Source of the DNA: Tetmemena sp. SeJ-2015
Taxonomy: Eukaryota; Ciliophora; Spirotrichea; Sporadotrichida; Oxytrichidae
Assembly: GCA_027382625.1 (NCBI GenBank)
Contig: JAJKFJ010025034.1
Coordinates: 1-10,622, forward strand
Direction of reading: 5' to 3'
DNA length: 10,622 bases
Below, piece after piece: positions 419 to 10,622 of the stretch (positions are counted from its first letter, which is position 1; the number at the start of each line of letters is the position of its first letter). Position numbers and translations under genes: made by a program. Under the pieces are notes generated by a model, which saw only the letters and a list, made by a program, of their open reading frames with translations, was not told the DNA's origin and made no database searches.

Positions 419-2084
419 TCAGTATGTATTATAATTAGATTTCGCACTCATCAAATGATGATGAGAAAGGTAGTCTCGTTTGAACATAACGCTGCTTTTC
501 TCTAGATTTTGAAAAAGAGTAGTGTCTTCGTTTGAGAGTACATCAATTCCTGGAGGAATGTTTGGAGAGCCGTAGAAATAAGCATTGCTACTCTAAGTGA
601 TGACTGAATAAATAAAATGCTTGGATGGAGCTAAAGTACCTGTGAGGTAACTTGATCTAAGGTTATTATCAGAGATTTGAGGATCCTCTGGCTCTGTTTT
701 TCTAATTTAGTCACTGTGTAAGAATGTGATTTTCTTATCTAGACTTTATAGCTGATTTGGCTATTCTTCCTCCTCTTCTTAATAAATGCTATCGTAAGTG
801 CTATTTGTGTTTCTCGTGCCCCTCCTCTATTAGAGACTCTGCACTTAGCTTCTGTAAGATAAGAACTGCATGACAAATGCCACTTAAATGGGGAACACTA
901 TCAAAATACTCAATAAATTATATTAAACTATCATGTAGGTGTGAAATACTAGAAAAACCCCACTAGACAAATATATTATAATAAGATCAGGAATTTTACG
1001 AGTTTGCAAAGCTGTAGACAGTGTCATTTTCTATATATTTAATCAAGTTGTAAATCGCTCTATACAGCAAGCTTATCGAAAATGACAGAGTTAAAATTTA
1101 TAAAGTTGTGAAGAAGGTCCTCCTCTTTTTAAAAATAAACGCTAAAAGGGTTCTTTCTTGTGGACTTCATAATTCTCTTTCTGTCATTCATTTTCTCTCT
1201 GAAGTAGAGGAACTGCAGCCAATGTGTATAAGTCATCAAAATGAAAGTGGATATGTATATCGAGAATTCCCTCTCTGGCTCCCTAAATTGTTCTAAGATA
1301 GAAAGATTTTTACTTTGAAAAGTTGCAGAGAGTATCTGTTGTAGAGCATCCGTTTTGATACTTATTGACTGCATCTGCTATTACTTGGCCAGAAATAACA
1401 AAAAATAAATTGCAACAAGGATGATGTAGATAAACACCCTGCTAATTATTTTACGAGTTTGAGTTTTGAAGAATGTCACTCCTTTTCGAAAAATCATTTT
1501 CATTCTATCATAGCCCAATTAAACTTGGATTTGGCTTACACATTTAGAATATAAGTCATCGCGGTAAAAGGAAACACTAGGGCAGGGTAGTAATTTAATA
1601 TTATAATATTTTTTAAAAATAGTATCGGAAAATATTATAAAGGCAGCATTTTATCTCGTCAACGTAAAATATAGCCACAAACAAAACCATTAAGCCTAAA
1701 TTAAGTTAAGAAAGCAGTTTAATTTATATGAGGTACTTACTTAGAAGAGTTGTTATCGAAAAGATGTACAGGAAAATAAGTGGGATGTTTCCGCATTTCC
1801 TGGTTTTTATAATTAAGTAGATATTGAAAAACGCTAGTATAATCGTGATGCCAATAACAATTTGATAAACCATGATTAATAGCTTCTCGTATTCTTGCAA
1901 GTTTTAATCTGCAGATGGTGTATCATCTTCTCCATCTATATATTAGCTAAGTTTAAAATTCATTGATAGTCTTACCTAATTTAGCCGGAAATGTAAGTAA
2001 ATTATGAGAAGTAATTTGTGCCTGAATCTATAGGAGGTATTGAATCGGGACTTTCTTGATTATATCATCAATCAAACTTTCCAT
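419..2084 (-). CDS. Seven-transmembrane protein with long cytoplasmic tail (germline form)
   Basis: Minus-strand gene with ATG at 2084-2082 and TGA at 421-419. Two GTAAG...TAG introns (40 and 45 nt) and three IESs (32, 14 and 44 bp) break the frame. Removing them leaves exactly 497 codons, 496 aa. Seven hydrophobic helices are visible at about residues 55-78, 88-112, 124-143, 172-190, 233-251, 308-330 and 332-351. They are preceded by a polar N-terminus and followed by a tail of about 145 residues with five Glu in a row (378-382) and Ser/Asn/His-rich sequence. Seven helices plus a cytoplasmic tail suggest a receptor-like membrane protein of the sort expanded in ciliates, but I see no diagnostic receptor motif and make no family call. 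The start lies about 105 bp from the divergent gene at 2190, so the two may share a promoter region. The 44-bp IES rests on a 3-bp pointer and is the weakest join. A 14-bp repeat complicates the same region. Confidence 0.78.
993..1006 (+). repeat. 14-bp direct repeat ATTTTACGAGTTTG, copy 1
   Basis: Identical to 1448-1461. On the minus strand both copies encode Gln-Thr-Arg-Lys-Ile in the 7TM gene (residues 302-306 here). Confidence 0.85.
1007..1050 (-). other. IES, about 44 bp, pointer CAA (provisional)
   Basis: A frame change is certain between the segment after helix 5 and the segment carrying helices 6-7, because the first frame meets TGA at 1026-1024. The best in-phase join uses a 3-bp CAA. 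A TGAT join is also possible. The right-hand pointer coincides with the first base of a 14-bp repeat. Confidence 0.5.
1448..1461 (+). repeat. 14-bp direct repeat ATTTTACGAGTTTG, copy 2
   Basis: Identical to 993-1006. It encodes residues 165-169 of the 7TM protein, in the same codon phase as the other copy. Confidence 0.85.
1498..1511 (-). other. IES, 14 bp, pointer ATGAT
   Basis: Two in-phase ATGAT copies 14 bp apart. The intervening bases carry in-frame TGA. Removal joins Phe-Asn-Trp-Ala to Met-Ile-Phe-Arg-Lys and continues into helix 4. It is far too short for an intron. Confidence 0.65.
1593..1624 (-). other. IES, 32 bp, pointer TACTA
   Basis: Almost pure A/T segment between two TACTA copies (minus strand), both in codon phase 1. 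Removal joins the Tyr-Asn-Ile-Phe-Arg segment to Tyr-Tyr-Pro-Ala-Leu, giving transmembrane helix 3. It has no GT/AG ends. Confidence 0.75.
1696..1740 (-). other. Intron, 45 nt, in the 7TM gene
   Basis: Reads GTAAGTAC...TTAACTTAATTTAG on the minus strand. Phase 1. The length is a multiple of three and there is no TGA, so it is silent in frame terms. The canonical ends, and the unbroken second transmembrane helix formed after removal, support it. Confidence 0.75.
1936..1975 (-). other. Intron, 40 nt, in the 7TM gene
   Basis: Reads GTAAGACT...CTAATATATAG on the minus strand, with a CTAAT branch-like sequence close to the acceptor. Phase 1. Removal joins an N-terminal polar segment to an acidic one (Gly-Glu-Asp-Asp) in frame. 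Confidence 0.75.
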
Positions 2085-2189
2085 TTTATATTTGATTTAG
2101 GATATTTCCCTTAAAAAATCCTGATAGGAGTTATTTTTTCGCTATAATTTAGGGTGTTAATTTTATGTTAATTAATATAAGTCTCTTAT
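2085..2189. promoter_or_regulatory. Short divergent intergenic region
   Basis: AT-rich stretch of about 105 bp between the start of the minus-strand 7TM gene and the start of the plus-strand gene at 2190. By position it would hold both 5' regions. No specific motif is recognised. Confidence 0.35.
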
Positions 2190-3347
2190 ATGTCAATATT
2201 TATATTTGGGTTGTGCGCTTGGATTTATCGTGCACTCCGATTAATATCTTGCTATTTATATTGCACTTCGAACCGGGAAATAACTTATATATAAACTTAG
2301 ATTGAAGAGGTCTGTGTTTAGCCCCATATTGGTGGTGCTAAAAAGCCCTCCTCAATCACTCTATCTAGAACAGCTTAGGCTACCTCACTCTTGACTTTTA
2401 AGTTTCTCGCCACTTCAGGTCAAGAGAATTAGGCAACTTAACGCATTATAATACAATTATTAAATATCTAACGCTGTCCATGAGTCACTTCCTTTTTCCG
2501 ATTGCAAAATATAGTGGAGAGAAAATGAGTAAGAGTTGAATTTTATGAATTGAATATGATGAATAATGTATTCTTACAACCAAGGTAGATTTTATTTATT
2601 GCTAAGGTCATCTGCTTATAGAGGTGTAGATCATAGATTAATTATCTCTTATTATTATAGTCACTGATTCATACATTATATATCATTTGGCTTGAGATCC
2701 AATATACTTAATTCATATATTTAGGAGCAAACCCCATCATATCTATTTTAGCATTGAATAGGGGAATAATTAACAAGTTGGATTCTTCAGTAATTTTGAA
2801 TGCTTTGAATGGTGTCTTGGGTGAAACCAATTGGATTTAGACTAGTGAACATTTGATAATGGTGCTGTGGAGAAGCTTGTTGGTAGGAAGTCCATGGCTG
2901 TTGGGGATATTGGGGGCATTAAAAGCCAATCGAATTGTAGTAAAATGGATTCTATGGGGTAGTCTCCCAGCCATTAAATTATTAAAATCCTTGAATGTAG
3001 TTAACAGAGCCGCCCATCATGGAATCCTTATCTTCAAAAATAAATGAAGAATATAACTTCCTGCACCTCCTAACTCTAAAGAGAGGAAGCACAAGAGAAG
3101 GAACTCTGAGATTAGTTATTTTTTCCCTTATCAGAGTGAAAAATAAGATGATCAAATAATTGATGAGAATTGAATGAAAAGCAGGGAGAGAATTGCCAGC
3201 AGGCAGTTAATGATTGTTATTAATTTAGCTCTCAGTTATTGTCATCTTGTCAAACTCAGATATAAAATTTAAGCACACAGAGGAGAGTTATTAATACATT
3301 TAGTATTGGGTGAAGTTATTAGCAGAGAAGTTGGATTCTGGAGTTGA
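2190..3347 (+). CDS. Ser/Gln-rich protein with N-terminal hydrophobic segment (germline form, middle unresolved)
   Basis: Proposed ATG at 2190 opens a hydrophobic N-terminus (about residues 2-25), followed by a Ser/Thr/Ala-rich stretch to about 2425. The C-terminal half is much clearer: from about 2770 a frame containing Lys-Leu-Asp-Ser-Ser runs through four IESs (50, 34, 38 and 28 bp, pointers of 7, 4, 6 and 8 bp). It ends with Arg-Glu-Val-Gly-Phe-Trp-Ser and TGA at 3345-3347. The C-terminal region has a basic patch (Lys-Glu-Arg-Lys-His-Lys-Arg-Arg) and several Cys in Gln-rich sequence. Between 2425 and 2770 several frames are open and the true joins cannot be fixed by eye. Plausible pieces are a 58-bp IES with pointer GAG, a 14-bp IES with pointer ATGAAT (2545-2558) and a 140-nt AT-rich intron ending near 2724. 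The family is not recognised. The gene is convergent with the one at 3407-4133, with a gap of only 59 bp. Confidence 0.55.
2808..2857 (+). other. IES, 50 bp, pointer AATGGTG
   Basis: Two 7-bp AATGGTG copies at 2808 and 2858, both read as Asn-Gly in phase 1. Removal joins Leu-Asn-Ala-Leu-Asn-Gly to Ala-Val-Glu-Lys-Leu and deletes the TGA at 2846-2848 that lies just upstream in the right-hand frame. Confidence 0.8.
3025..3058 (+). other. IES, 34 bp, pointer TCCT
   Basis: AT-rich segment with in-phase TCCT copies. Removal joins Ser-Trp-Asn-Pro to Ala-Pro-Pro-Asn-Ser-Lys and leads into a basic patch. The pointer is only 4 bp, so the boundary is provisional. Confidence 0.6.
3137..3174 (+). other. 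IES, 38 bp, pointer TGAAAA
   Basis: AT-rich segment between two in-phase 6-bp copies. Removal joins Tyr-Gln-Ser-Glu-Lys to Gln-Gly-Glu-Asn-Cys and skips in-frame TGA codons on both sides. Confidence 0.75.
3286..3313 (+). other. IES, 28 bp, pointer AGTTATTA
   Basis: An 8-bp repeat at 3286 and 3314, in the same codon phase on each side. Removal replaces a TGA at 3311 with the C-terminus Val-Ile-Ser-Arg-Glu-Val-Gly-Phe-Trp-Ser and a stop at 3345. Confidence 0.75.
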
Positions 3348-3406
3348 AAAGTTAGAACCCTGCGTAAACTATAAATTTCCATTCACTCGCAAAATATAAG
3401 CATATA

Positions 3407-4133
3407 TCATTAAAAATAAGCCATATGATTTTTAAGATTGTAGAATTTATCTGTGAACATAGGGTTAGCTGGTCTTTCAGGTATCAGTTTCTCCTCGGAC
3501 CAGCTTCTTTCTTTAGAAATTTGCAATCTGTCGGGAATAGAGAAGTTCTGCTGGTTGAATCCATTGAGAGTGGGCTGGGGAGAGCTTCTATTAAATCCTG
3601 ATGCTGAGTGGGGGACCACCGACTTTTATGAGCCTTGAATGATTTTTGGCTTGGTGACTTTAATTTATTTCTTGGGTTACCAAATCGAGGCCATTTCCTC
3701 TTCAGCCTCATACAAGAACTTTAGCTACCTCGAGCAGGAAGCCCCTGAAGTCTCAACTGAGAAATCCTGTTCATCGTTACTCAATTAGTATTCGATTCAA
3801 TTTTAAACTACTAGAAAATAGAGATGCCTTATCTTCACTGTTTTGGCTTGATTGACATGATAAGGGTGACAGACTAACAGGCGACGATTTTTGAGTTGAA
3901 ACTTCACTCTTTAAATTACATAAGATAGATTAATGATGATTATATAAGTATTATAATTTTATCTTCAGGAGAGAATTTGAGGTCTGTTGTTTTAGCTTGA
4001 TGACGTGTAGGGGAGAGATACCGTAGATAGATGTTTCCGGGCTTGATAATAAATTAAAAGATAGAGAGTTAACAGAATTCTTGAAGTGAGAAAGAACTTG
4101 ATTATCGGCGTACTGGGTGTATTATACTTCCAT
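3407..4133 (-). CDS. Small Ser/Gln-rich protein of unknown function (germline form)
   Basis: Minus-strand gene with ATG at 4133-4131 and TGA at 3409-3407. Three IESs of 101, 61 and 16 bp (pointers ATCAAG, TGAAG, AATTGA) interrupt it. Removing them leaves exactly 183 codons, 182 aa. The N-terminal half is Ser/Gln-rich. Residues 80-96 hold a Leu-Tyr-Glu-Ala-Glu-Glu-Glu-Met stretch followed by Ile-Trp. The rest is rich in Asn, Pro, Gln and Lys and ends Asn-His-Met-Ala-Tyr-Phe-Gln. There is no signal peptide, membrane segment or recognisable domain, so it is probably largely disordered. Several Gln codons are TAA or TAG. The plus-strand open frame over 3453-3638 is a shadow of this gene. Confidence 0.7.
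3787..3802 (-). other. IES, 16 bp, pointer AATTGA
   Basis: Two 6-bp AATTGA copies 16 bp apart, in phase on both sides. Without removal the upstream frame meets TGA at 3773-3771. Removal joins Ser-Leu-Lys-Leu to Ser-Asn-Asp-Glu-Gln. Confidence 0.75.
3907..3967 (-). other. IES, 61 bp, pointer TGAAG
   Basis: Very AT-rich block flanked by TGAAG in the same codon phase. Removal joins Lys-Phe-Ser-Pro-Glu to Val-Ser-Thr-Gln-Lys. The base composition contrasts clearly with both sides. Confidence 0.7.
4002..4102 (-). other. IES, 101 bp, pointer ATCAAG
   Basis: Two in-phase ATCAAG copies (minus strand, 4102-4097 and 4001-3996). A third ATCAAG copy lies inside. The segment is open in more than one frame, so the join is supported by the 6-bp pointer, exact codon count and the smooth Asp-Asn-Gln-Ala-Lys join rather than by a stop. 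Confidence 0.6.
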
Positions 4134-4596
4134 TATTTATATTGGATTTAGGTCGCGAATGATTATTCGGAGGGTTTAGATTAGGGAGTAGTAGAGTTGT
4201 ATTTATAATTTATATTATTAATAGTATTATCAAATATAATGTTATATTTAAATATAGAGAGTATTTTATGAATGGGATAATATAAGTTTCTTCTTTTTAT
4301 ACTCAGCATTTGCTTAAAATATTTTTAAAGAAAAAGAAGCATTATTTTTTTAAAAACCACTATCGCCACTCCTTGATAAAATCAGCCTCACTAGAAATTA
4401 ACTTTATAAGTGAATATTAAAATAAATTAAAAAGTTTCTAGTTTAAAAATGCTGAATTATTCATTTAATTTGTATTTGCATAAAAATAAATTATCACTCT
4501 AAATTGTAACATAAAATATTTTAATAGCTAGTAGGAATGTTGAAGTTTAAGATTGATAAAATTTTAATTAGTTTATAATTGGTTTGGATAAAAGGA
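4134..4596. other. AT-rich intergenic spacer
   Basis: Between two divergent genes. Bases 4200-4560 are the most AT-rich long stretch of the window, with many A/T runs. I see no gene, no RNA gene, no telomere-like repeat and no transposon end in it. Confidence 0.6.
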
Positions 4597-4608
4597 ATGG
4601 GAGCATGC

Positions 4609-5283
4609 ATGTCTGAATAAAACTTAAAGAGTTCAGTGAAGCAACTAAATGGCTCCACCACTATCACTAAATCTGCCACTATGACTAACTAAGGAGAATA
4701 AATAAAAGAGCATAATACAGTGTCCGAAGCCACAAGCTAGCAAGTCAGTCACCAAGATAGAAATTCACCCAGCAAACATACCAATGGATTTATTCTCATA
4801 TCCTATTTTAAATGGAGTGCTTTCAAGCTAAAATAATGATTCAGAGAGTGAGGAAGAGTCAAACGATCAAAGAGCAGCTATTTCAAAGGCAAAGCTTAAA
4901 GATTAATAGCAACTGGGAGCTGTCATTCAAAACGGCTAAGCTATGTCTCCCTCCAAGAAAAGAGCACTTTAATCTATACACATCGATTTATTATAATCTA
5001 ACAGCAAATGCAAGAAACACAAAAAGGTCAAGCTCAGCATACATTCAGAGCACACTCTTCATCGCAGAAAGAATTTCCTAGAACCATTGAGTTTATTTTT
5101 CCATGGAGCTGTTCGAGTTAATTCACGGAGTAAGGATGTAAAAGTGAGACACCCAACTTCCTGCCGGGCATGGGTATAAAGAAATGGATTTGCAAGGACT
5201 GTGCTTTCTTTGTTTGCAAAGCTTGCGTAAAAGAATACACTTCAAAGGAGCATGGAGATAGCAGTTCTAGTGATAGCGAATGA
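4609..5283 (+). CDS. Protein with C-terminal ZZ-like zinc-finger segment (germline form)
   Basis: ATG at 4609 (an in-frame ATG at 4597 would add four residues) and TGA at 5281-5283. Three IESs of 28, 24 and 26 bp (pointers AATGGA, TAATCTA, GAGTT) are removed to give 198 aa. Residues 1-60 are Ser/Thr/Gln-rich, 68-75 are acidic (Asp-Ser-Glu-Ser-Glu-Glu-Glu), and 107-140 are Lys/His-rich with Cys117 and His120. The C-terminal part has Cys151 and then Trp-Ile-Cys169-x2-Cys172-x4-Cys177-x2-Cys180 and His189, ending in Asp and four Ser. The two close CxxC pairs with an aromatic/Val before the second pair resemble the second half of a ZZ-type zinc finger, a protein-binding domain. The first half is not clear, so B-box-like or divergent fingers are alternatives. 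No partner can be inferred. Confidence 0.78.
4783..4810 (+). other. IES, 28 bp, pointer AATGGA
   Basis: AATGGA at 4783 and 4811, both read Asn-Gly in phase. Left in place, the upstream frame hits TGA at 4837. Removal leads into Val-Leu-Ser-Ser-Gln and the acidic stretch. Confidence 0.82.
4970..4993 (+). other. IES, 24 bp, pointer TAATCTA
   Basis: A 7-bp repeat at 4970 and 4994, in phase. The segment is a multiple of three and has no TGA, so it is frame-neutral and shows only by its repeat and AT-richness. Retention would add eight residues. Confidence 0.65.
5089..5114 (+). other. IES, 26 bp, pointer GAGTT
   Basis: GAGTT at 5089 and 5115 in the same codon phase. Removal moves the reading frame into the one that encodes the CxxC finger. 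Confidence 0.72.
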
Positions 5284-5456
5284 AACAGTAGGTCAAAGGG
5301 ATCTTAATACAAGTTAAAAACTATGTTATGTGCAGTATTTTATCCTAAATTATTTTTTCACTAAAAATATGAAGATTATCATAAGAATTCGCAGAGGCAT
5401 TTTAGAAAATATAAACTTTATAATTTTTGAATTTCTTTTGATAAAAGAATAGACTA
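5284..5456. other. Short AT-rich spacer
   Basis: Holds the 3' region of the zinc-finger gene and the 5' region of the TPR gene. Nothing specific is recognised. Confidence 0.4.
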
Positions 5457-7998
5457 ATGAGCTGTCCATTTGTAAATAAGGACCTACTCTCTAGATTACC
5501 CGACGAGAAAAGGGCAGAACTAGAACAGTACTACAAAAACTTTGTCCAAAAGGATGAAACCAATTTATTTTAACTCAAGGCACTTAGGCCTAAGAACTAT
5601 GCCCAGTTATGAAACTGAATGAGGAAAATATTGACACTGAAGAGCCGAAATCCTATTCTACCTAACAAGCAAATGCTTTGGCAGCAGGAGGCGCGGGTGC
5701 TTGCCCATTTATTTCTTCTAGTAAGAATTAATTACATTCAATATTTTATTGTATAGAGCACACTGATCCTGGTTTGGACTTCTTTGAGGTTGGAAGCAAC
5801 ATAAAGTACAAGTCTAAGTACTCTCACTTCCTCAACATCAGAACCTTTTTTGAATACCCAGAAGACAAGTCTGAGTCCAGCGATTAAAATCCAATTAACA
5901 GAACTTCTTAATGTAAGTGCGATCAACTTAACCAAAGTAGAGGATAAAGTTCGACCTAGCGCAAATTCTGAGTTACAGGAAAATTAAGAAAATATTCAAA
6001 GAAACATGTAAGCCTATTTTTTAACCAGACAATTATGCTTTAGAGAGAACCTTTGCAAGGAAGATATGGTAGATGCTCATCTCAAGGAAGAATTAAAAAG
6101 CCACGAGAAAGTTAACAAGTTCTAGAAGAAGTTTAAACAAGCTAGTATGCTATTCCTTTCATAACTAACTCCATATTAGAATAACACTTAGACCAAAACG
6201 AAGATATCTAACTTATCAACATTTCATTTTTAAAGATTTGTTCAATGATGATTTGCAAGCTTAAATTGAAAGCAGGTCTACAGAAGCAGAGGGTGATTAA
6301 AATGAAGATAGTCTTCCCTCTACAAGAAAGCTGGGAAAGAAATTAGTTTTTACCAAGGAACAGATCAAGAAAGATTGATTTTCTCTCTTATAATATTTTA
6401 GACTAATCAAAAATCCGGCAATATCCAGCGGTCTTGCTTCAAACTTTATTCCACAGCAATCCCAAATTTGATAAATATAGGCAGGCAGATTCGAGTGAGC
6501 TGTTCTTCTTTTCTGATGAAATTAAAACTATGGGTAACGATGCCTATCAAAAGAATAACTTCTATTTGGCTTTGGATTTCTATGAGCAGGCCCTATGTCT
6601 TTATAACTGGCTTGAGTTGAGGCATGAGAAAAAGGAATCAGGAGAGATAAGTGAGAAGAAGAAAGTGTCCTTCACTATGTTTGGGAAGGAGCCAGTAAGG
6701 ATAACCGATGAGAGAGTTTTCAATATGTTTAAAGCCTAGCAGGGTGATGAAGATCCTCTTTTAGAAAAAGAAAACTGTAAGCTTCTTTTGCTTTAAACTT
6801 TATAGTGGATTCTTTGGTTATAAACTTGCTCTAGAATGCTTTTGTCTGTTATATGAAGCTCTACCACTTCAAGCAAGCAAAGAAAAATAATTGAGTGATA
6901 TATAATGTTTATAAGAAGGTAGCTAATTACATAAAGTAGTTGAAGCCAGAATATCCTCTGTGCTACTCTTTAATTGGATTAAGCACCTATTACAATCTAA
7001 ATGCAGACTATAAAGAAATAAGGGACACTATAGAGGAGGTAGCGAATAAATTACTTATTTATTTTAATGGGTTGAAGCTAGTCCAAACTTACGTGCAAGG
7101 TTACACTCAAAAGGAAATCCAGAAGATTCATAAAGTGCTTGAGTTGCTTGATACTCATGATTTTTCTATAGTTTTTAATTTCTCAGTTGAAAAACAGAAT
7201 AAAGAAAGATGTGTAAACAGTTGAGAAGATTTTAAATAGAGCAAAAAAGATATATGAGCTGAGGAGCAGCAGAGGGCAGATCGTGAAGGAAAAAGCCTAT
7301 GACTGCAAAACTTCTCACTCTAACTTTAGACTGGTTTCCAAGTAAGTACTAAATTGCAGTAGAAGTTTAAAACTTAATTTAGAATGAACAAGAAATACTT
7401 TGATGTGCTAGAGTACTTTAGAGAGAGTTAGCAGCCAGTGGAATGTGTGAAAGTTATCTAAGAGTATCAAAAATTTGCACCTACATTTAATGAAATGAGA
7501 TATCTGCTGGAGGTCCTTAATTTCCGCGATCTCGATTCTGAGGTACAAAAAGAGCTTCCCTAAGACTTGGTCATTTTTAGCTCTTTGATTATTATTTCAT
7601 TTTGGTTGAACTGATGAAGCAAAATGAATTCATCATTCCAATAGCAAATGAGATAAGAGAAAGACTAGCTTATGAGGAATTCTAGAATGCCAAAATGATG
7701 AATGTGTTTCTTTATAATTTTGAATATAGACTTACTAAACTACTCAATGGAACTAATTGATAAAGAAGATGAGAAAGAAAAGAAGAGAAAGAAGAAAAGC
7801 GGAGAATGGCAAGAGGAGAAGGGTCCGATCACAAGCACAGTAAATTGGCTTCTTGGAGACAGTAAATGGCAGATTTCATTTAATCTGATGCTGTTCTTAC
7901 TGATGGTGGGACTATACTTCTATATTAGATTTGACATGTGTTCTTATTTAAAATATAATTATAGTTTTTATTTCGATGGGTGCAAGAAAAAGAAATGA
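5457..7998 (+). CDS. TPR protein with C-terminal membrane anchor (germline form)
   Basis: ATG at 5457, TGA at 7996-7998. Removing four GTAAG...TAG introns and seven proposed IESs leaves exactly 636 codons, 635 aa. Cys-Pro pairs lie at residues 3-4, 23-24 and 57-58. Residues 120-220 are charged and probably helical. A clear TPR begins at Gly241-Asn-Asp-Ala-Tyr and runs to Trp266-Leu-Glu. A second covers about 327-357 (Asn-Ala-Phe-Val-Cys-Tyr ... Phe-Lys-Gln-Ala ... Leu-Lys-Pro). More helical repeats follow to about 555, then a Lys-rich stretch (561-569), one hydrophobic helix (about 594-613) and a C-terminus of four Lys. The layout resembles TPR co-chaperones anchored by a C-terminal tail, and the terminal Lys would fit ER retrieval; both are inference. 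The last 40 residues are AT-rich and uncertain: an alternative join (TATAA at 7954 and 8052) would instead run on into the next gene. Confidence 0.8.
5517..5593 (+). other. IES, 77 bp, pointer GAACTA
   Basis: Two in-phase GAACTA copies (Glu-Leu). A frame change here is certain because the first frame reaches TGA at 5610. A 44-nt GTCC...TTAG intron at 5544-5587 would also restore the frame and keep a helical stretch, but it lacks the GTAAG start of every other intron. Confidence 0.5.
5721..5756 (+). other. Intron, 36 nt
   Basis: GTAAGAAT...TGTATAG, phase 1, length a multiple of three. Canonical ends and AT-richness. It splits a Lys codon before His-Thr-Asp-Pro. Confidence 0.75.
5913..5940 (+). 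other. Intron, 28 nt
   Basis: GTAAGTGC...TTAACCAAAGTAG with a CTTAAC branch-like site. Phase 1. Removal changes the frame into a long Glu/Gln-rich coding stretch and recreates a TAG Gln codon at the junction. Confidence 0.85.
6138..6255 (+). other. IES, 118 bp, pointer CAAGCT
   Basis: Two CAAGCT copies at 6138 and 6256, each read Gln-Ala in phase. The AT-rich interior has a TGA in the upstream frame. It also contains a GTATGC...TTAG intron-like piece, but excising that alone does not connect the coding frames. Confidence 0.8.
6373..6469 (+). other. IES, about 97 bp, pointer GAT (boundary uncertain)
   Basis: The upstream frame stops at TGA 6376 right after Gln-Ile-Lys-Lys-Asp, and the TPR-bearing frame resumes near 6470. 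GAT is in phase at both ends. CCAA, CAA, or two smaller IESs with pointers ATCAA and AATCC would also work. Confidence 0.5.
6777..6805 (+). other. Intron, 29 nt
   Basis: GTAAGCTT...TTTAAACTTTATAG, phase 1. Removal joins Glu-Lys-Glu-Asn to Leu-Asp-Ser-Leu-Val-Ile-Asn and opens the second TPR. Confidence 0.88.
6880..6912 (+). other. IES, 33 bp, pointer AAGAA
   Basis: AAGAA at 6880 and 6913 flank an AT-rich 33-bp segment with an in-frame TGA at 6892. The length is a multiple of three and there is no GT start. Removal restores the 12-residue spacing from the second TPR's Ala to its Pro. Confidence 0.88.
7121..7223 (+). other. IES, 103 bp, pointer AGAAGATT
   Basis: An 8-bp repeat at 7121 and 7224, in phase. 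Removal joins Lys-Glu-Ile-Gln-Lys-Ile to Leu-Asn-Arg-Ala-Lys-Lys and avoids TGA at 7222. This is among the longest pointers in the window. Confidence 0.82.
7342..7382 (+). other. Intron, 41 nt
   Basis: GTAAGTACTAAA...CTTAATTTAG, phase 2. Removal joins Arg-Leu-Val-Ser to Lys-Met-Asn-Lys-Lys-Tyr. Confidence 0.85.
7567..7601 (+). other. IES, 35 bp, pointer TTGGT
   Basis: TTGGT at 7567 and 7602, in phase. Removal joins Pro-Gln-Asp-Leu-Val to Glu-Leu-Met-Lys-Gln. The interior is T-rich. Confidence 0.75.
7720..7756 (+). other. IES, 37 bp, pointer TTGA (or 28 bp, pointer GAA)
   Basis: A frame change before the Lys/Glu-rich stretch is certain, since the upstream frame ends at TGA 7758. Two in-phase pointers fit: TTGA (7720/7757) or GAA (7722/7750). 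They differ by three residues. Confidence 0.6.
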
Positions 7999-8048
7999 TT
8001 CCTTTTATTAATTTCAACTCTATCTCATTAATTTTATCTGTTTCCAAT

Positions 8049-8594
8049 ATGTATAACTTAAAGTAGCCAATTGAAGCAGAAGTAGCAAAGAATAGTTATG
8101 AAAACAATGTAGAGGAGCATTCAATAGATGAAGACAATATTATAATTAGTTTAATACTAGTATAGGGTTATTAAATCTGATTGACTACATTAAGAGACCT
8201 GCTACGGCTGGTGCAGACATTACTAGCATGAATCAATTACTAGAAAGCTCTAAATATTTGCCTGAATTTAGAGGAAAATCAGACTTTAAAGGCGTAATAA
8301 GCAACACAAATGCTAAAAGCAAAGTCAGAGATGAGCTAGCAAGTGAAACTAGAAACAAAACTTTGCGTATTAATTGCATAAATATTTTGTAAAACTAAGC
8401 GAAGCCTTCAGAAGTATTCTTCAATAGATGCTTGCTTCCCTACTAATTTAAATAGAGTAGCTTTTGGAACTGTCTCCAAGGCTTTTGTAAAACCTCTTTC
8501 ATTTAAGTATGGAGCGGTCTTCAAAAATAAATCTGAGGAAGCTAGGTACTACAAAATGCAATACCAAATTCTCAAACTCAGACATCTATTGGTT
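8049..8594 (+). CDS. Incomplete gene, weakly like DNA polymerase epsilon B-subunit N-terminus
   Basis: ATG at 8049 opens a frame interrupted by two IESs (17 and 34 bp). It encodes Leu-Ile-Asp-Tyr-Ile-Lys-Arg-Pro near its start, a charged middle, and Val-Ala-Phe-Gly-Thr-Val-Ser-Lys toward the end. The last clear stretch, EARYYKMQYQILKLRHL, resembles from memory the helix before the OB/phosphoesterase region of polymerase epsilon subunit 2 (pattern A-x-aromatic-x4-Y-x-I-L-x2-R). This is a weak hint, not an identification. After about 8594 the sequence turns strongly AT-rich with no nearby stop (first in-frame TGA 8787) and no further coding. The gene is therefore either scrambled, with its other MDSs elsewhere, or a fragment. 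Alternatively a TATAA pointer at 7954/8052 could make it the C-terminal part of the preceding TPR gene. Confidence 0.55.
8136..8152 (+). other. IES, 17 bp, pointer AATA
   Basis: In-phase AATA at 8136 and 8153 around an all-A/T/G 17-bp segment. Removal joins Asp-Glu-Asp-Asn to Thr-Ser-Ile-Gly-Leu-Leu. The unremoved frame reaches TGA at 8178. Confidence 0.65.
8357..8390 (+). other. IES, 34 bp, pointer AAAACT
   Basis: AAAACT at 8357 and 8391, both read Lys-Thr in phase. Removal joins Glu-Thr-Arg-Asn-Lys-Thr to Lys-Arg-Ser-Leu-Gln-Lys. Confidence 0.8.
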
Positions 8595-8792
8595 ATATTT
8601 ATATAATACTCTACTTTTTCTTATTTATGTCTCGTCTCGTAAAATTTATTTGATATTAAATTACTTAAAGCATACAGTAATCATATATTTTTTGACTATA
8701 AAAATATTTTGCATGTAAAATTTATGAATGAATAACCTTTAAAAGTTTAATCTCTAAATTTAATTTTGAAAAACTATATGTTTTATTGATTA
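8595..8792. other. AT-rich spacer
   Basis: Strongly AT-rich region after the incomplete gene and before the next start. No feature is seen. An in-frame TGA at 8787-8789 lies just before the next ATG. Confidence 0.5.
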
Positions 8793-10205
8793 ATGAAGGT
8801 TAATGATCCTCGAAGTTCTCATGAGTATATTTTCAAGTTCCTGAAAGAATTCTTCTCTCTAGAGTAAATAAGTCACTTTACAGACGAAGGACTCAGGAAC
8901 TTTATCCAAGCAATCATTGAAGTTAAAATAATAAATCCAAACTACACTTTGGAAGAGTTCATTATCTTAATTTAATCAATGTTTTCTTCTTTAATCGAGA
9001 GCATGAACGGTAAATTAGAGAACTATGAATTTTAAGAAACTCAGCTAGATTAAAATTAGAAGTTCTAGTCTCTAGCTTAAACCAAGAGGTTTGATATTCT
9101 CAATTCTTCACAAGGACTGGCACATGAAATTTTAGCAGCAAGTGAGCTTAACTCAACTGGAGATATCAAATTAGACTTGTCTTATACACCTGATCAAGCT
9201 AAGAAGCAAGGTCAGCCAAAGTCAGTTTCAAAATTTGAGCTAGGGAATAGCGTCAGGAAGGAAACTTCAATTTCACCAAGTGGCTAAAGTCCAATAAGAT
9301 TGGAGGATTATAACCAATAGAGCTAGCAAGATCTCAGTTTTGGCACTCTTAGCAAACCCGAGAGATCCAGGCAAAGAGTTCAGAGCGCTCATAGAACTAC
9401 AGGCGGTCTTAGTTTTAATTTAAGTATGAAGCAGAACATGCAGAGGTTAGGCCTTTCCAGAAACTAAATAGAGCAGTAAAACTCTAATTCTACTTCACCG
9501 ATCAAGTAAAGCATTAATTTGGTATATTATTGATACTTCTTATACTCGCAATGCTTTATATAATGTACAGTCCGATGTCAGGAAGGCCAGAGCCGTTTGT
9601 TTAGAACTTCAATATACCCAAGCTAGCCCCAATGAACAATTTACTTCTAAGATAGAGTTAGAATTAAGGAGGCTACTAGAAGTATAAGTGTTCTTCTGTG
9701 TCAGCCAATACTTCAGCAACAGTTATAAAGGATTTATAAAATGCTCCAAACTACACAAATCTCTCCTAACTTGCTTATTTGGCTGCTAGTCATCAGTAAA
9801 TTGCAGCAAATGATTAAAACTTCTCAAGTCAAATTAAAAAGAGCAGTCAAAAAGACTTAAGAAAGTCTGGAGAGGGTAACTTGACTGGAAAGAATGAAGG
9901 ATTAAGAGGAAGTGGGGCCCATTCGAATTAGGGATCGAGCAAGAGACCTTCAAGACCTTAAAGCAGTATGGTAATAAGGAGATCTCAGCAAAGCATCCAT
10001 TCTAGTTAGTTGCTCTAATGCCATCAAACGAGTACTAATCCAAAGAAGCTGTATATAATTATTTATTGCTATAGCTAATACGAAATTACATCAACCAACA
10101 AAACATAAGAATAGCATTCATATTAATACTTTTAAAAGCTTACGAAATTCAACCTCCAAGTTGTAAAGAGCCACCTAAAGACTGCTAGCTTGCTCTACTG
10201 AGTGA
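8793..10205 (+). CDS. Ser/Gln-rich protein, probably largely disordered (germline form)
   Basis: ATG at 8793, two codons after an in-frame TGA, which fixes the start. After two IESs (74 bp CCGAT, 40 bp CTAAT) the frame ends at TGA 10203-10205, giving exactly 433 codons, 432 aa. Residues 1-75 look folded and helical, with Glu/Phe/Leu-rich sequence (His-Glu-Tyr-Ile-Phe-Lys-Phe-Leu). From about 80 the protein is dominated by Ser, Gln, Asn and Lys with basic Arg/Ser patches toward the C-terminus. Many Gln are TAA or TAG, so a standard-code ORF finder misses the gene entirely. No domain is recognised. The folded N-terminus may be the functional part and the tail a linker or a phosphorylation target, which is inference only. 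Confidence 0.8.
9498..9571 (+). other. IES, 74 bp, pointer CCGAT
   Basis: CCGAT at 9498 and 9572 in the same codon phase around an AT-rich segment with a TGA at 9531. Removal joins Asn-Ser-Thr-Ser-Pro to Met-Ser-Gly-Arg-Pro. Confidence 0.82.
10035..10074 (+). other. IES, 40 bp, pointer CTAAT
   Basis: CTAAT at 10035 and 10075, in phase. Removal joins His-Gln-Thr-Ser-Thr-Asn to Thr-Lys-Leu-His-Gln-Pro and leads to the stop at 10203. Without removal the frame runs through AT-rich sequence to TGA 10199. Confidence 0.68.
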
Positions 10206-10256
10206 GATAGAGGGCCACAATCCAAGGTAACAATATATATTATAGAATAACGTTTG

Positions 10257-10269
10257 ATAGCATGAGAGA
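10257..10269 (+). repeat. 13-bp direct repeat ATAGCATGAGAGA, copy 1
   Basis: Identical to 10367-10379, 110 bp apart. Copy 1 contains the proposed start codon; copy 2 spans a proposed intron acceptor. Its length suits a pointer. Confidence 0.8.
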
Positions 10270-10622
10270 CTTAAAAACAAAGTATCAAAAGGATGGAATC
10301 ATGAGAAGAAACAAGCTGTTGCTTGAGCATATACTCGTAAGGAATCTAATTATTATAATTAATTCTATAGCATGAGAGATTGGAAAAATCAATTTCTACC
10401 ATCAACTACTATCAGGGATTTGCGTATTAGAAATTTTAATTTTCTTTAAACAAGAAGCCTTGAATCAATTACTGAATGGAAGCAATATTTTGCTAAACGA
10501 ATAATCACAAAACGATATTGCACTTATTCAAGACCAAACATCAAATTGAATTTAACTTAATTTCATTTAGATCATATTCACATAGATAAAGTAAATTTGG
10601 CAATTAATCAATTTTACTCTTT
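10262..10622 (+). CDS. Start of a further gene (partial)
   Basis: ATG at 10262 opens MRDLKTKYQKDGIMRRNK and a Leu-rich stretch to 10336. A 34-nt GTAAGG...TATAG intron follows, then His-Glu-Arg-Leu-Glu-Lys and further coding to about 10430. Beyond that two frames are both plausible. One ends in TGA near 10548; the other stays open to the window edge. The N-terminal half is charged and helical with no recognised domain. Only 56 bp separate it from the previous stop. A 13-bp repeat covering the start codon recurs 110 bp downstream and allows a different reading. An alternative upstream frame (10140-10225) rich in Pro and Cys could also feed into it. Confidence 0.42.
10337..10370 (+). other. Intron, 34 nt (proposed)
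   Basis: GTAAGGAATCT...AATTCTATAG, phase 0, in the size range and with the ends of the other introns in the window. Its 3' end overlaps the second copy of a 13-bp repeat. Confidence 0.6.
10367..10379 (+). repeat. 13-bp direct repeat ATAGCATGAGAGA, copy 2
   Basis: Identical to 10257-10269. Joining at the repeat would give Met-Arg-Asp-Trp-Lys and a frame open to the window edge. Confidence 0.8.

What the first reader, a model, noticed from the sequence alone, without database searches (positions are those of the whole stretch)
419..10205. Dense germline gene cluster broken by more than 20 short IESs
About 20 AT-rich segments of 14-118 bp interrupt seven code-6 genes. Each is flanked by a 3-8 bp direct repeat in the same codon phase on both sides, and removing the segment plus one repeat restores the frame. 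For five genes the resulting length is an exact number of codons (497, 183, 199, 636, 433). The repeats share no motif, which argues against TA-bounded Paramecium or Euplotes type elements and fits hypotrich pointers.
Basis: partly seen in the sequence, partly recalled or inferred. Interest (0 to 1): 0.9.

Follow-up and report, generated by a model that had tools for sequence, protein, structure and literature searches.

The report
Germline genes split by removable DNA
This is likely a piece of a ciliate's germline genome in which genes are broken by short AT-rich DNA segments that are predicted to be cut out at small repeats when the working nucleus forms; it is a good example of a known kind of genome editing, but several of the proposed segments look instead like ordinary RNA introns, and part of the gene map had to be redrawn.

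Summary
Partly confirmed. The window is a whole 10.6-kb contig of an unnamed 146-Mb assembly, most likely the germline of a hypotrich ciliate. Proteins of relatives (two from Stylonychia lemnae, one unnamed) match two genes here. Removing 17 AT-rich segments (14-207 bp, median 30) at 2-6 bp direct repeats restores both frames. A register-shifted control never reaches the true repeat rule (0 of 14 decoys for each of three proteins). In the restored 719-aa gene, differences from a 98% identical copy are mostly silent (33 silent, 3 not). So IESs with pointers are real here.

Window 1741-1743 is the empty site of a 557-bp element, likely Tc1/mariner-derived, that interrupts the same gene in two sister copies: a possible IES birth. 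New member of a known kind.

The parts
419..2084 (-). Gene 1, predicted membrane protein of 505 aa (no homolog found)
   Evidence: Frame restored with 2 intron candidates and 2 IES candidates; against copy B 26 silent and 13 replacement codons, 28 of 41 substitutions at position 3. Homolog search: none of 7992 scored candidates at E<=0.01.
1036..1064 (-). Weak IES candidate in gene 1, pointer TATAGA, 29 bp
   Evidence: Chosen in 1 of 2 settings; the other setting puts 1030-1040 here.
1607..1640 (-). IES candidate in gene 1, 10-bp pointer TTATAATATT, 34 bp
   Evidence: 2 of 2 settings; no homolog.
1696..1740 (-). Intron candidate in gene 1, GTAAGT...TTTAG, 45 bp
   Evidence: Splice motifs only; it is open and in frame, so the frame does not demand its removal, and the codon model kept it.
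1741..1743 (.). TTA: empty site of the 557-bp element X that sister copies B and C carry
   Evidence: Alignment of A, B, C.
1936..1975 (-). Intron candidate in gene 1, GTAAGA...ATATAG, 40 bp
   Evidence: Splice motifs and frame; the codon model preferred a 10-bp cut at 1993-2002 instead.
2193..4133 (-). Gene 2 region, structure unresolved
   Evidence: Codon model only, boundaries change with settings; 3 of 10 A/B substitutions at position 3, 2 silent and 2 replacement codons.
3787..3802 (-). IES candidate in gene 2, pointer AATTGA, 16 bp
   Evidence: 2 of 2 settings; copy B has a 1-bp length difference at its edge.
4597..5283 (+). Gene 3, predicted 210 aa with a cysteine-rich C-terminal part
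   Evidence: Two IES candidates; 11 silent and 3 replacement codons against copy B. No family above its cut-off.
4783..4810 (+). IES candidate in gene 3, pointer AATGGA, 28 bp
   Evidence: Codon model.
5089..5114 (+). IES candidate in gene 3, pointer GAGTT, 26 bp
   Evidence: Codon model.
5457..7998 (+). Gene 4, 719 aa after 9 IESs and 4 introns
   Evidence: Homologs P0001 and P0002; open frame; 33 silent and 3 replacement codons against copy B.
5558..5571 (+). IES, pointer AAC, 14 bp
   Evidence: 4 of 4 settings with P0001, 2 of 4 with P0002.
5721..5756 (+). Likely intron GTAAGA...TATAG, 36 bp
   Evidence: Gives SSKHTDPG, identical to P0002; no repeat at the cut.
5913..5940 (+). Likely intron GTAAGT...GTAG, 28 bp
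   Evidence: Restores frame, no repeat at the cut; flanks weakly conserved.
6165..6207 (+). IES, pointer CTAACT, 43 bp
   Evidence: Needed for the frame; not picked by either homolog alignment.
6372..6399 (+). IES, pointer AGA, 28 bp
   Evidence: 4 of 4 with P0001 and with P0002.
6777..6805 (+). Likely intron GTAAGC...TATAG, 29 bp
   Evidence: Restores frame, no repeat at the cut; borders a stretch that both homologs lack.
6880..6912 (+). IES, pointer AAGAA, 33 bp
   Evidence: 4 of 4 with P0001; P0002 lacks this stretch.
7045..7065 (+). IES, pointer AAT, 21 bp, in frame
   Evidence: 4 of 4 with P0001 and with P0002.
7154..7181 (+). IES, pointer CTCA, 28 bp
   Evidence: 4 of 4 with P0001 and with P0002.
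7342..7382 (+). Likely intron GTAAGT...TTTAG, 41 bp
   Evidence: Gives SKMNKKYF against QKMHKKYF (P0001) and TKMHCKYF (P0002); no repeat at the cut.
7567..7601 (+). IES, pointer TTGGT, 35 bp
   Evidence: 4 of 4 with P0001 and with P0002.
7699..7720 (+). IES, pointer TGAAT, 22 bp
   Evidence: 4 of 4 with P0001 and with P0002.
7944..7967 (+). IES, pointer TTATTT, 24 bp, in frame
   Evidence: 4 of 4 with P0001 and with P0002.
8183..10549 (+). Gene 5 from the first surely placed codon to its stop; start not resolved
   Evidence: Homolog P0003; open frame after 8 IESs.
8357..8390 (+). IES, pointer AAAACT, 34 bp
   Evidence: Frame; the homolog alignment prefers 8346-8391, AAACTA, in 4 of 4.
8591..8797 (+).
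   Evidence: 4 of 4 with P0003; could also be cut as GTTATA...GAAG.
8964..8993 (+). IES, pointer ATC, 30 bp, in frame
   Evidence: 4 of 4 with P0003.
9507..9556 (+). IES, pointer TA, 50 bp, perfect 9-bp terminal inverted repeat
   Evidence: 3 of 4 with P0003; inverted repeat P 0.0005.
10047..10072 (+). IES, pointer AGCT, 26 bp
   Evidence: 4 of 4 with P0003.
10113..10136 (+). IES, pointer AGC, 24 bp, in frame
   Evidence: 4 of 4 with P0003.
10241..10365 (+). IES, pointer TATAG, 125 bp, 8-bp terminal inverted repeat
   Evidence: 3 of 4 with P0003; inverted repeat reached by 0 of 2000 shuffles.
10430..10461 (+). IES, pointer GAA, 32 bp
   Evidence: 4 of 4 with P0003.

Best explanation
The window is likely a hypotrich-ciliate germline (micronuclear) locus whose genes are interrupted by short AT-rich segments bounded by 2-6 bp direct repeats, which would be removed as DNA (internal eliminated sequences, IESs) with one repeat copy kept when the somatic nucleus develops, while at least four further segments are likely spliceosomal introns removed later from RNA. 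Shown here: 17 segments whose removal at direct repeats restores two genes in agreement with proteins of relatives, and mostly silent divergence in the restored frames. Inferred: that the cell performs the excision, and that the GTAAG...AG segments are spliced. The excision machinery is not visible in the window; by analogy with Oxytricha it would be Tc1/mariner-type transposases with RNA templates. A minority of the IESs probably descend from Tc1/mariner-type elements: two carry terminal inverted repeats, and the empty site at 1741-1743 is filled in two sister copies by a 557-bp element whose end matches that of an element with a DDE transposase domain.
For: Homologs skip the segments. Pointer rule beats all 14 register-shifted decoys for each of 3 proteins (6 decoys each for two proteins). 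Open frames of 719 aa and from 8183 to the stop at 10549. Silent bias against copy B: gene 4 33 silent to 3 replacement, gene 5 2 to 0, gene 1 26 to 13, gene 3 11 to 3; random silent fraction 0.197. Clean split: 17 of 17 IESs have a repeat at the cut and 16 of 17 have no GT...AG cut; 4 of 4 introns have GTAAG...AG and no repeat. Transposase domain DDE_3 matches are many in the assembly (150 scored of 921 candidates), as expected of a germline assembly. The homologs P0002 and P0003 come from contigs of 2246 and 3217 bp, as expected of somatic mini-chromosomes.
Against: No somatic DNA or RNA of the same species was available. Frames can be threaded through shuffled DNA just as well, so genes without homologs stay uncertain; gene 2 shows no silent bias. 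Two of 17 IES boundaries rest on frame only. Copy B has four 1-bp indels in exons of genes 4 and 5, by assembly error or young decay. The IES 8591-8797 could be an intron by its ends. The codon model did not itself choose the two gene-1 introns. Several actin genes of the assembly are uninterrupted over the Pfam match, so IES density varies.
Confidence: 0.9

Rival explanations
1. All the segments are spliceosomal introns, removed from RNA, and nothing is removed as DNA.
For: Four segments in gene 4 do look like introns, and IES 8591-8797 can be cut as GT...AG. Short introns occur in spirotrichs (28-42 bp mostly in Strombidium cf. sulcatum; PMC10901763 section 15).
Against: 16 of 17 IESs have no GT...AG cut among their equivalent positions, and all have a direct repeat; the repeat rule is supported against decoys.
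Confidence: 0.03
2. The locus is a decaying pseudogene copy whose frames are broken by chance insertions.
For: Copy B carries four 1-bp indels in exons, and copy C loses the rest of gene 1 beyond element X.
Against: Restored frames differ from copy B mostly at silent sites, 33 to 3 in gene 4; the interruptions are shared by A and B and flanked by repeats in register.
Confidence: 0.03
3. For the genes without homologs (1, 2 and 3), many individual IES calls are chance direct repeats chosen to keep a frame open in a one-stop genetic code.
For: Threading succeeds in 30 of 30 shuffles; gene 2 boundaries shift with settings and its A/B substitutions show no silent bias.
Against: Genes 1 and 3 show silent bias in the chosen frames; the 10-bp repeat at 1607-1640 is long.
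Confidence: 0.4

Closest known systems
Germline IESs and pointers of Oxytricha trifallax and Tetmemena (PMC9797194: passages, outline and sections 6, 9, 10 seen)
   Same: Short, mostly non-TA direct repeats kept once; IESs within coding sequence; introns and IESs in the same genes; canonical pointers of 2-20 bp
   Different: No somatic genome of this species to confirm; no scrambled order seen in this window; species not named. The median IES of 30 bp here (17 IESs) is below the 73 bp given for O. trifallax (PMC10901763 section 18), from a small and selected sample
Paramecium / Euplotes TA-bounded IESs with terminal consensus TAYAGYNR (PMC8384191, passages seen)
   Same: IES 9507-9556 has a TA pointer and terminal inverted repeat; element X in its TA context reads TATAGTTC / TATAGTGC, 7 of 8 consensus positions
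   Different: 15 of 17 IESs have no significant terminal inverted repeat and most pointers are longer than TA
MITE-type IESs of Blepharisma (PMC9942856, search listing only)
   Same: Non-autonomous DNA elements accommodated in a ciliate germline genome
   Different: Element X shares its end with a Tc1/mariner-type element of this assembly and is present or absent between sister copies; its excision is not shown
Intron-IES conversion (discussed in PMC9797194 section 10)
   Same: Introns and IESs side by side in one gene, and an element inserted directly at an exon-intron border
   Different: No position was shown to be intron in one species and IES in another

Membership tests
Hypotrich IES with pointer | Direct repeat at both ends, in the same reading register, one copy kept | tested here: met
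   17 of 17; true register beats 14 of 14 decoys for 3 of 3 homologs
Hypotrich IES with pointer | Absent from the somatic gene | tested here: inconclusive
   Absent from proteins of related species; same-species somatic DNA not available
Hypotrich IES with pointer | Physical excision during macronuclear development | not testable with these tools
   Needs DNA from developing nuclei
Hypotrich IES with pointer | Host is a hypotrich (UAA/UAG = Gln, somatic mini-chromosomes) | tested here: inconclusive
   Code 6 frames and best named homologs in Stylonychia lemnae; the 18S search did not complete
Paramecium/Euplotes TA IES | TA at every boundary with a shared terminal consensus | tested here: not met
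   TA occurs in 5 of 17 pointers; 2 of 17 have terminal inverted repeats
Spliceosomal intron (5721-5756, 5913-5940, 6777-6805, 7342-7382) | GT...AG ends, frame restored, no repeat needed | tested here: met
   4 of 4; RNA not tested
Tc1/mariner-derived non-autonomous element (X) | Multi-copy, fixed ends, short target-site duplication, terminal inverted repeats, ends shared with a transposase-coding element | tested here: inconclusive
   19 of 43 listed matches cover at least 92% of the query copy, itself included, at 67-100% identity; TTA repeated at B and C4774 but only TA shared at C622; 36-base left end shared with an element on C4324 that holds a DDE_3 match, whose right end was not found; the inverted-repeat alignment of the 70-bp ends of X scores 27, within the shuffle range (mean 20.9, maximum 37), although the outermost 12 bases agree at 10

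The most novel reading that the evidence does not exclude
The window holds the empty copy of an IES being born: a 557-bp Tc1/mariner-derived element sits at 1741-1743 in sister germline copies, right at an exon-intron border of a gene under selection, and is tolerated because it is cut out as DNA at a TTA pointer. Together with the small inverted-repeat IESs two genes away, this shows transposon-to-IES conversion at several stages, next to true introns, within one 10-kb hypotrich locus.
Probability: 0.35. Interest if true: 0.6.

Novelty: new member of a known kind. Interest (0 to 1): 0.42.

Why it matters
It gives a small germline locus in which DNA-level and RNA-level removal can be told apart by sequence (repeat and no GT...AG, against GTAAG...AG and no repeat), which bears on the open question of intron-IES conversion. 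The element that is present in two copies and absent in the third makes the transposon origin of IESs testable within one species. It also shows that frame restoration at short repeats is not evidence in a one-stop genetic code, since shuffled DNA allowed it in 30 of 30 trials.

Tried and rejected
A repeat-jump codon model over whole strands fused genes and invented IESs; rejected, and turned into a control. A seven-state frame HMM missed the AT-rich membrane gene. The first homology alignments without introns placed doubtful pointer cuts where introns lie; revised. An intron-aware codon model deleted membrane segments of gene 1 and was refitted. Pfam on ten raw frames gave nothing above a cut-off, and on one frame of L049 nothing. 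Search for homologs of gene 1 found none. Enrichment of the ANT motif in pointers: not significant. Copy C was first read as carrying a long transposon; beyond X it has other open frames that by eye resemble a calpain-type protease and a small GTPase (no family search was made), so an exchange between X copies or a misassembly at X is likelier. My query covered only about 60 bp of X plus 500 bp of flank by mistake; one search used a full copy. The first 223 residues of P0003 matched nowhere among the 10 matches in this assembly. The species was not identified: GC 30.8% in a 200-kb sample does not decide it.
Full report
What the window is. The window is the whole of contig C5060 (10,622 bp) of an unnamed assembly of 146.2 Mb in 5213 contigs; contig lengths seen run from 10,007 to 278,886 bp. 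Two near copies exist: B on C1890 (98.0% over 8.26 kb and 96.5% over 1.74 kb) and C on C1121 (95.4% over 1.74 kb). The homologs with a named source are both Stylonychia lemnae (P0002, P0003). P0001 is listed only as eukprot:403331870, which I recall, but did not verify, as an Oxytricha trifallax accession.

With one stop codon and cheap 3-bp repeats a frame can be threaded through almost any DNA. In 30 of 30 first-order Markov shuffles of 5457-7998 the same procedure found 734-798 codons with 5-16 'IESs' (the real sequence: 811 codons with 7). Exact codon totals follow from any such threading, so independent evidence was needed.

Homology. P0001 (613 aa) and P0002 (585 aa) align along 5457-7998 with 397 and 354 identical residues, and skip the AT-rich segments. 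Across four parameter settings 13 of the 17 IESs returned identically in 4 of 4 with at least one homolog, two in 3 of 4, one rests on frame alone, and one has a preferred alternative boundary. The restored gene 4 has 719 aa; gene 5 is open from 8183 to the stop at 10547-10549 (stop position counted on the sequence), its start unresolved.

Control for the pointer rule. The same alignment was run with a rule in which the cut lands 1-8 bases off the true repeat register. For P0001 the true rule scored 2009.2 against decoys with mean 1939.7, s.d. 10.6, maximum 1964.8; for P0002 1737.8 against 1676.9, 9.4, 1694.1; for P0003 962.9 against 915.4, 11.6, 940.5; 14 decoys each, none reaching the true score. 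A first version with 6 decoys for P0001 and P0003 agreed.

Selection. Against copy B, gene 4 shows 34 of 40 substitutions at codon position 3, and 33 silent against 3 replacement codons; gene 5, over the 493 codons covered, 2 against 0; gene 1, 26 against 13; gene 3, 11 against 3. The random silent fraction is 0.197. Gene 2 gave 2 against 2 with 3 of 10 substitutions at position 3 and stays unresolved. B differs by four 1-bp indels and one 6-bp indel in the exons compared. Over genes 4 and 5 together, IESs do not differ faster than exons (7 in 569 against 42 in 3647 bases).

Introns among the segments. Four segments in gene 4 begin GTAAG and end AG, restore the frame exactly, and have no repeat at the cut; all 17 IESs have a repeat of 2-6 bp, and 16 of 17 cannot be cut as GT...AG. 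Two introns are supported by residues of the homologs on both sides (5721-5756 and 7342-7382); 5913-5940 lies in a weakly conserved stretch, and 6777-6805 borders a stretch that both homologs lack. Gene 1 has two more candidates by motif, which the codon model did not choose. Introns and IESs have been discussed as interconvertible (PMC9797194 section 10).

Inverted-repeat IESs and element X. IES 9507-9556 has a TA pointer and a perfect 9-bp terminal inverted repeat (P 0.0005), and IES 10241-10365 an 8-bp one (0 of 2000 shuffles); the other 15 have none at P below 0.05 (not corrected for 17 tests). At 1741-1743 the window lacks a 557-bp element X that B and C carry. With a copy on C622 as query, 19 of 43 listed matches, the query copy included, cover at least 92% of it at 67-100% identity (lower bounds). 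The first 36 bases of X recur at the start of an element on C4324 that holds a DDE_3 match 0.75-1.14 kb inside; its other end was not found in the 2.4 kb read. In B the flanks repeat TTA; at C622 only TA is shared. In gene sense X lies directly before the GTAAGT of the intron candidate 1696-1740. Copy C continues beyond X into other sequence. Excision of X is inferred, not shown.

Reading. This is a germline locus of the hypotrich type with IESs and introns side by side: a new example of a known kind. What a specialist may want from it is the element present in two copies and absent in the third within a coding gene, and the clean sequence split between segments removed as DNA and segments removed as RNA.

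Noticed in passing
window 1741-1743; C1890:62740-63296; C1121:6100-6657; C622:10833-11390: 557-bp multi-copy element X, absent from the window but inserted in the same coding gene in two sister copies.
   Followed up: partly
L006/L007 (C1121) beyond 6658: Copy C departs from copies A and B exactly at the right end of X and continues into other open frames, pointing to an exchange between X copies or a misassembly at X.
   Followed up: partly
L044 and L049 (C4324:11600-14013): Element with the same left end as X and an open frame matching DDE_3, a possible autonomous relative.
   Followed up: partly
window 5457-7998 against C1890: IESs plus introns of gene 4 carry fewer substitutions (5 in 382) than fourfold sites (15 in 206), Fisher P 0.0004; substitutions are clustered along the window and IESs are AT-rich, so constraint is not shown.
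   Followed up: no
window 4140-4590 and 5500-5999: Substitutions against copy B are uneven: 30 in 451 bases between genes 2 and 3, none in 5500-5999, as if by patches of exchange.
   Followed up: no
window 10258-10269 and 10368-10379: TAGCATGAGAGA occurs twice, once inside the IES 10241-10365 and once in the coding part after it: a possible small duplication of coding sequence.
   Followed up: no
C2293:49904-51013, C3998:8847-9962 and others: Many actin-family genes in the assembly (65 matches), some uninterrupted across the domain, others in pieces.
   Followed up: no
17 IESs of genes 4 and 5, sense strand: T exceeds A inside 13 of 17 IESs, is below A in 3 and equal in 1, a bias like that of introns.
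   Followed up: no
P0001 and P0002 against window 6777-6979: Both annotated homologs lack a stretch that the window encodes here; the public gene models may have skipped it as an over-long intron.
   Followed up: no
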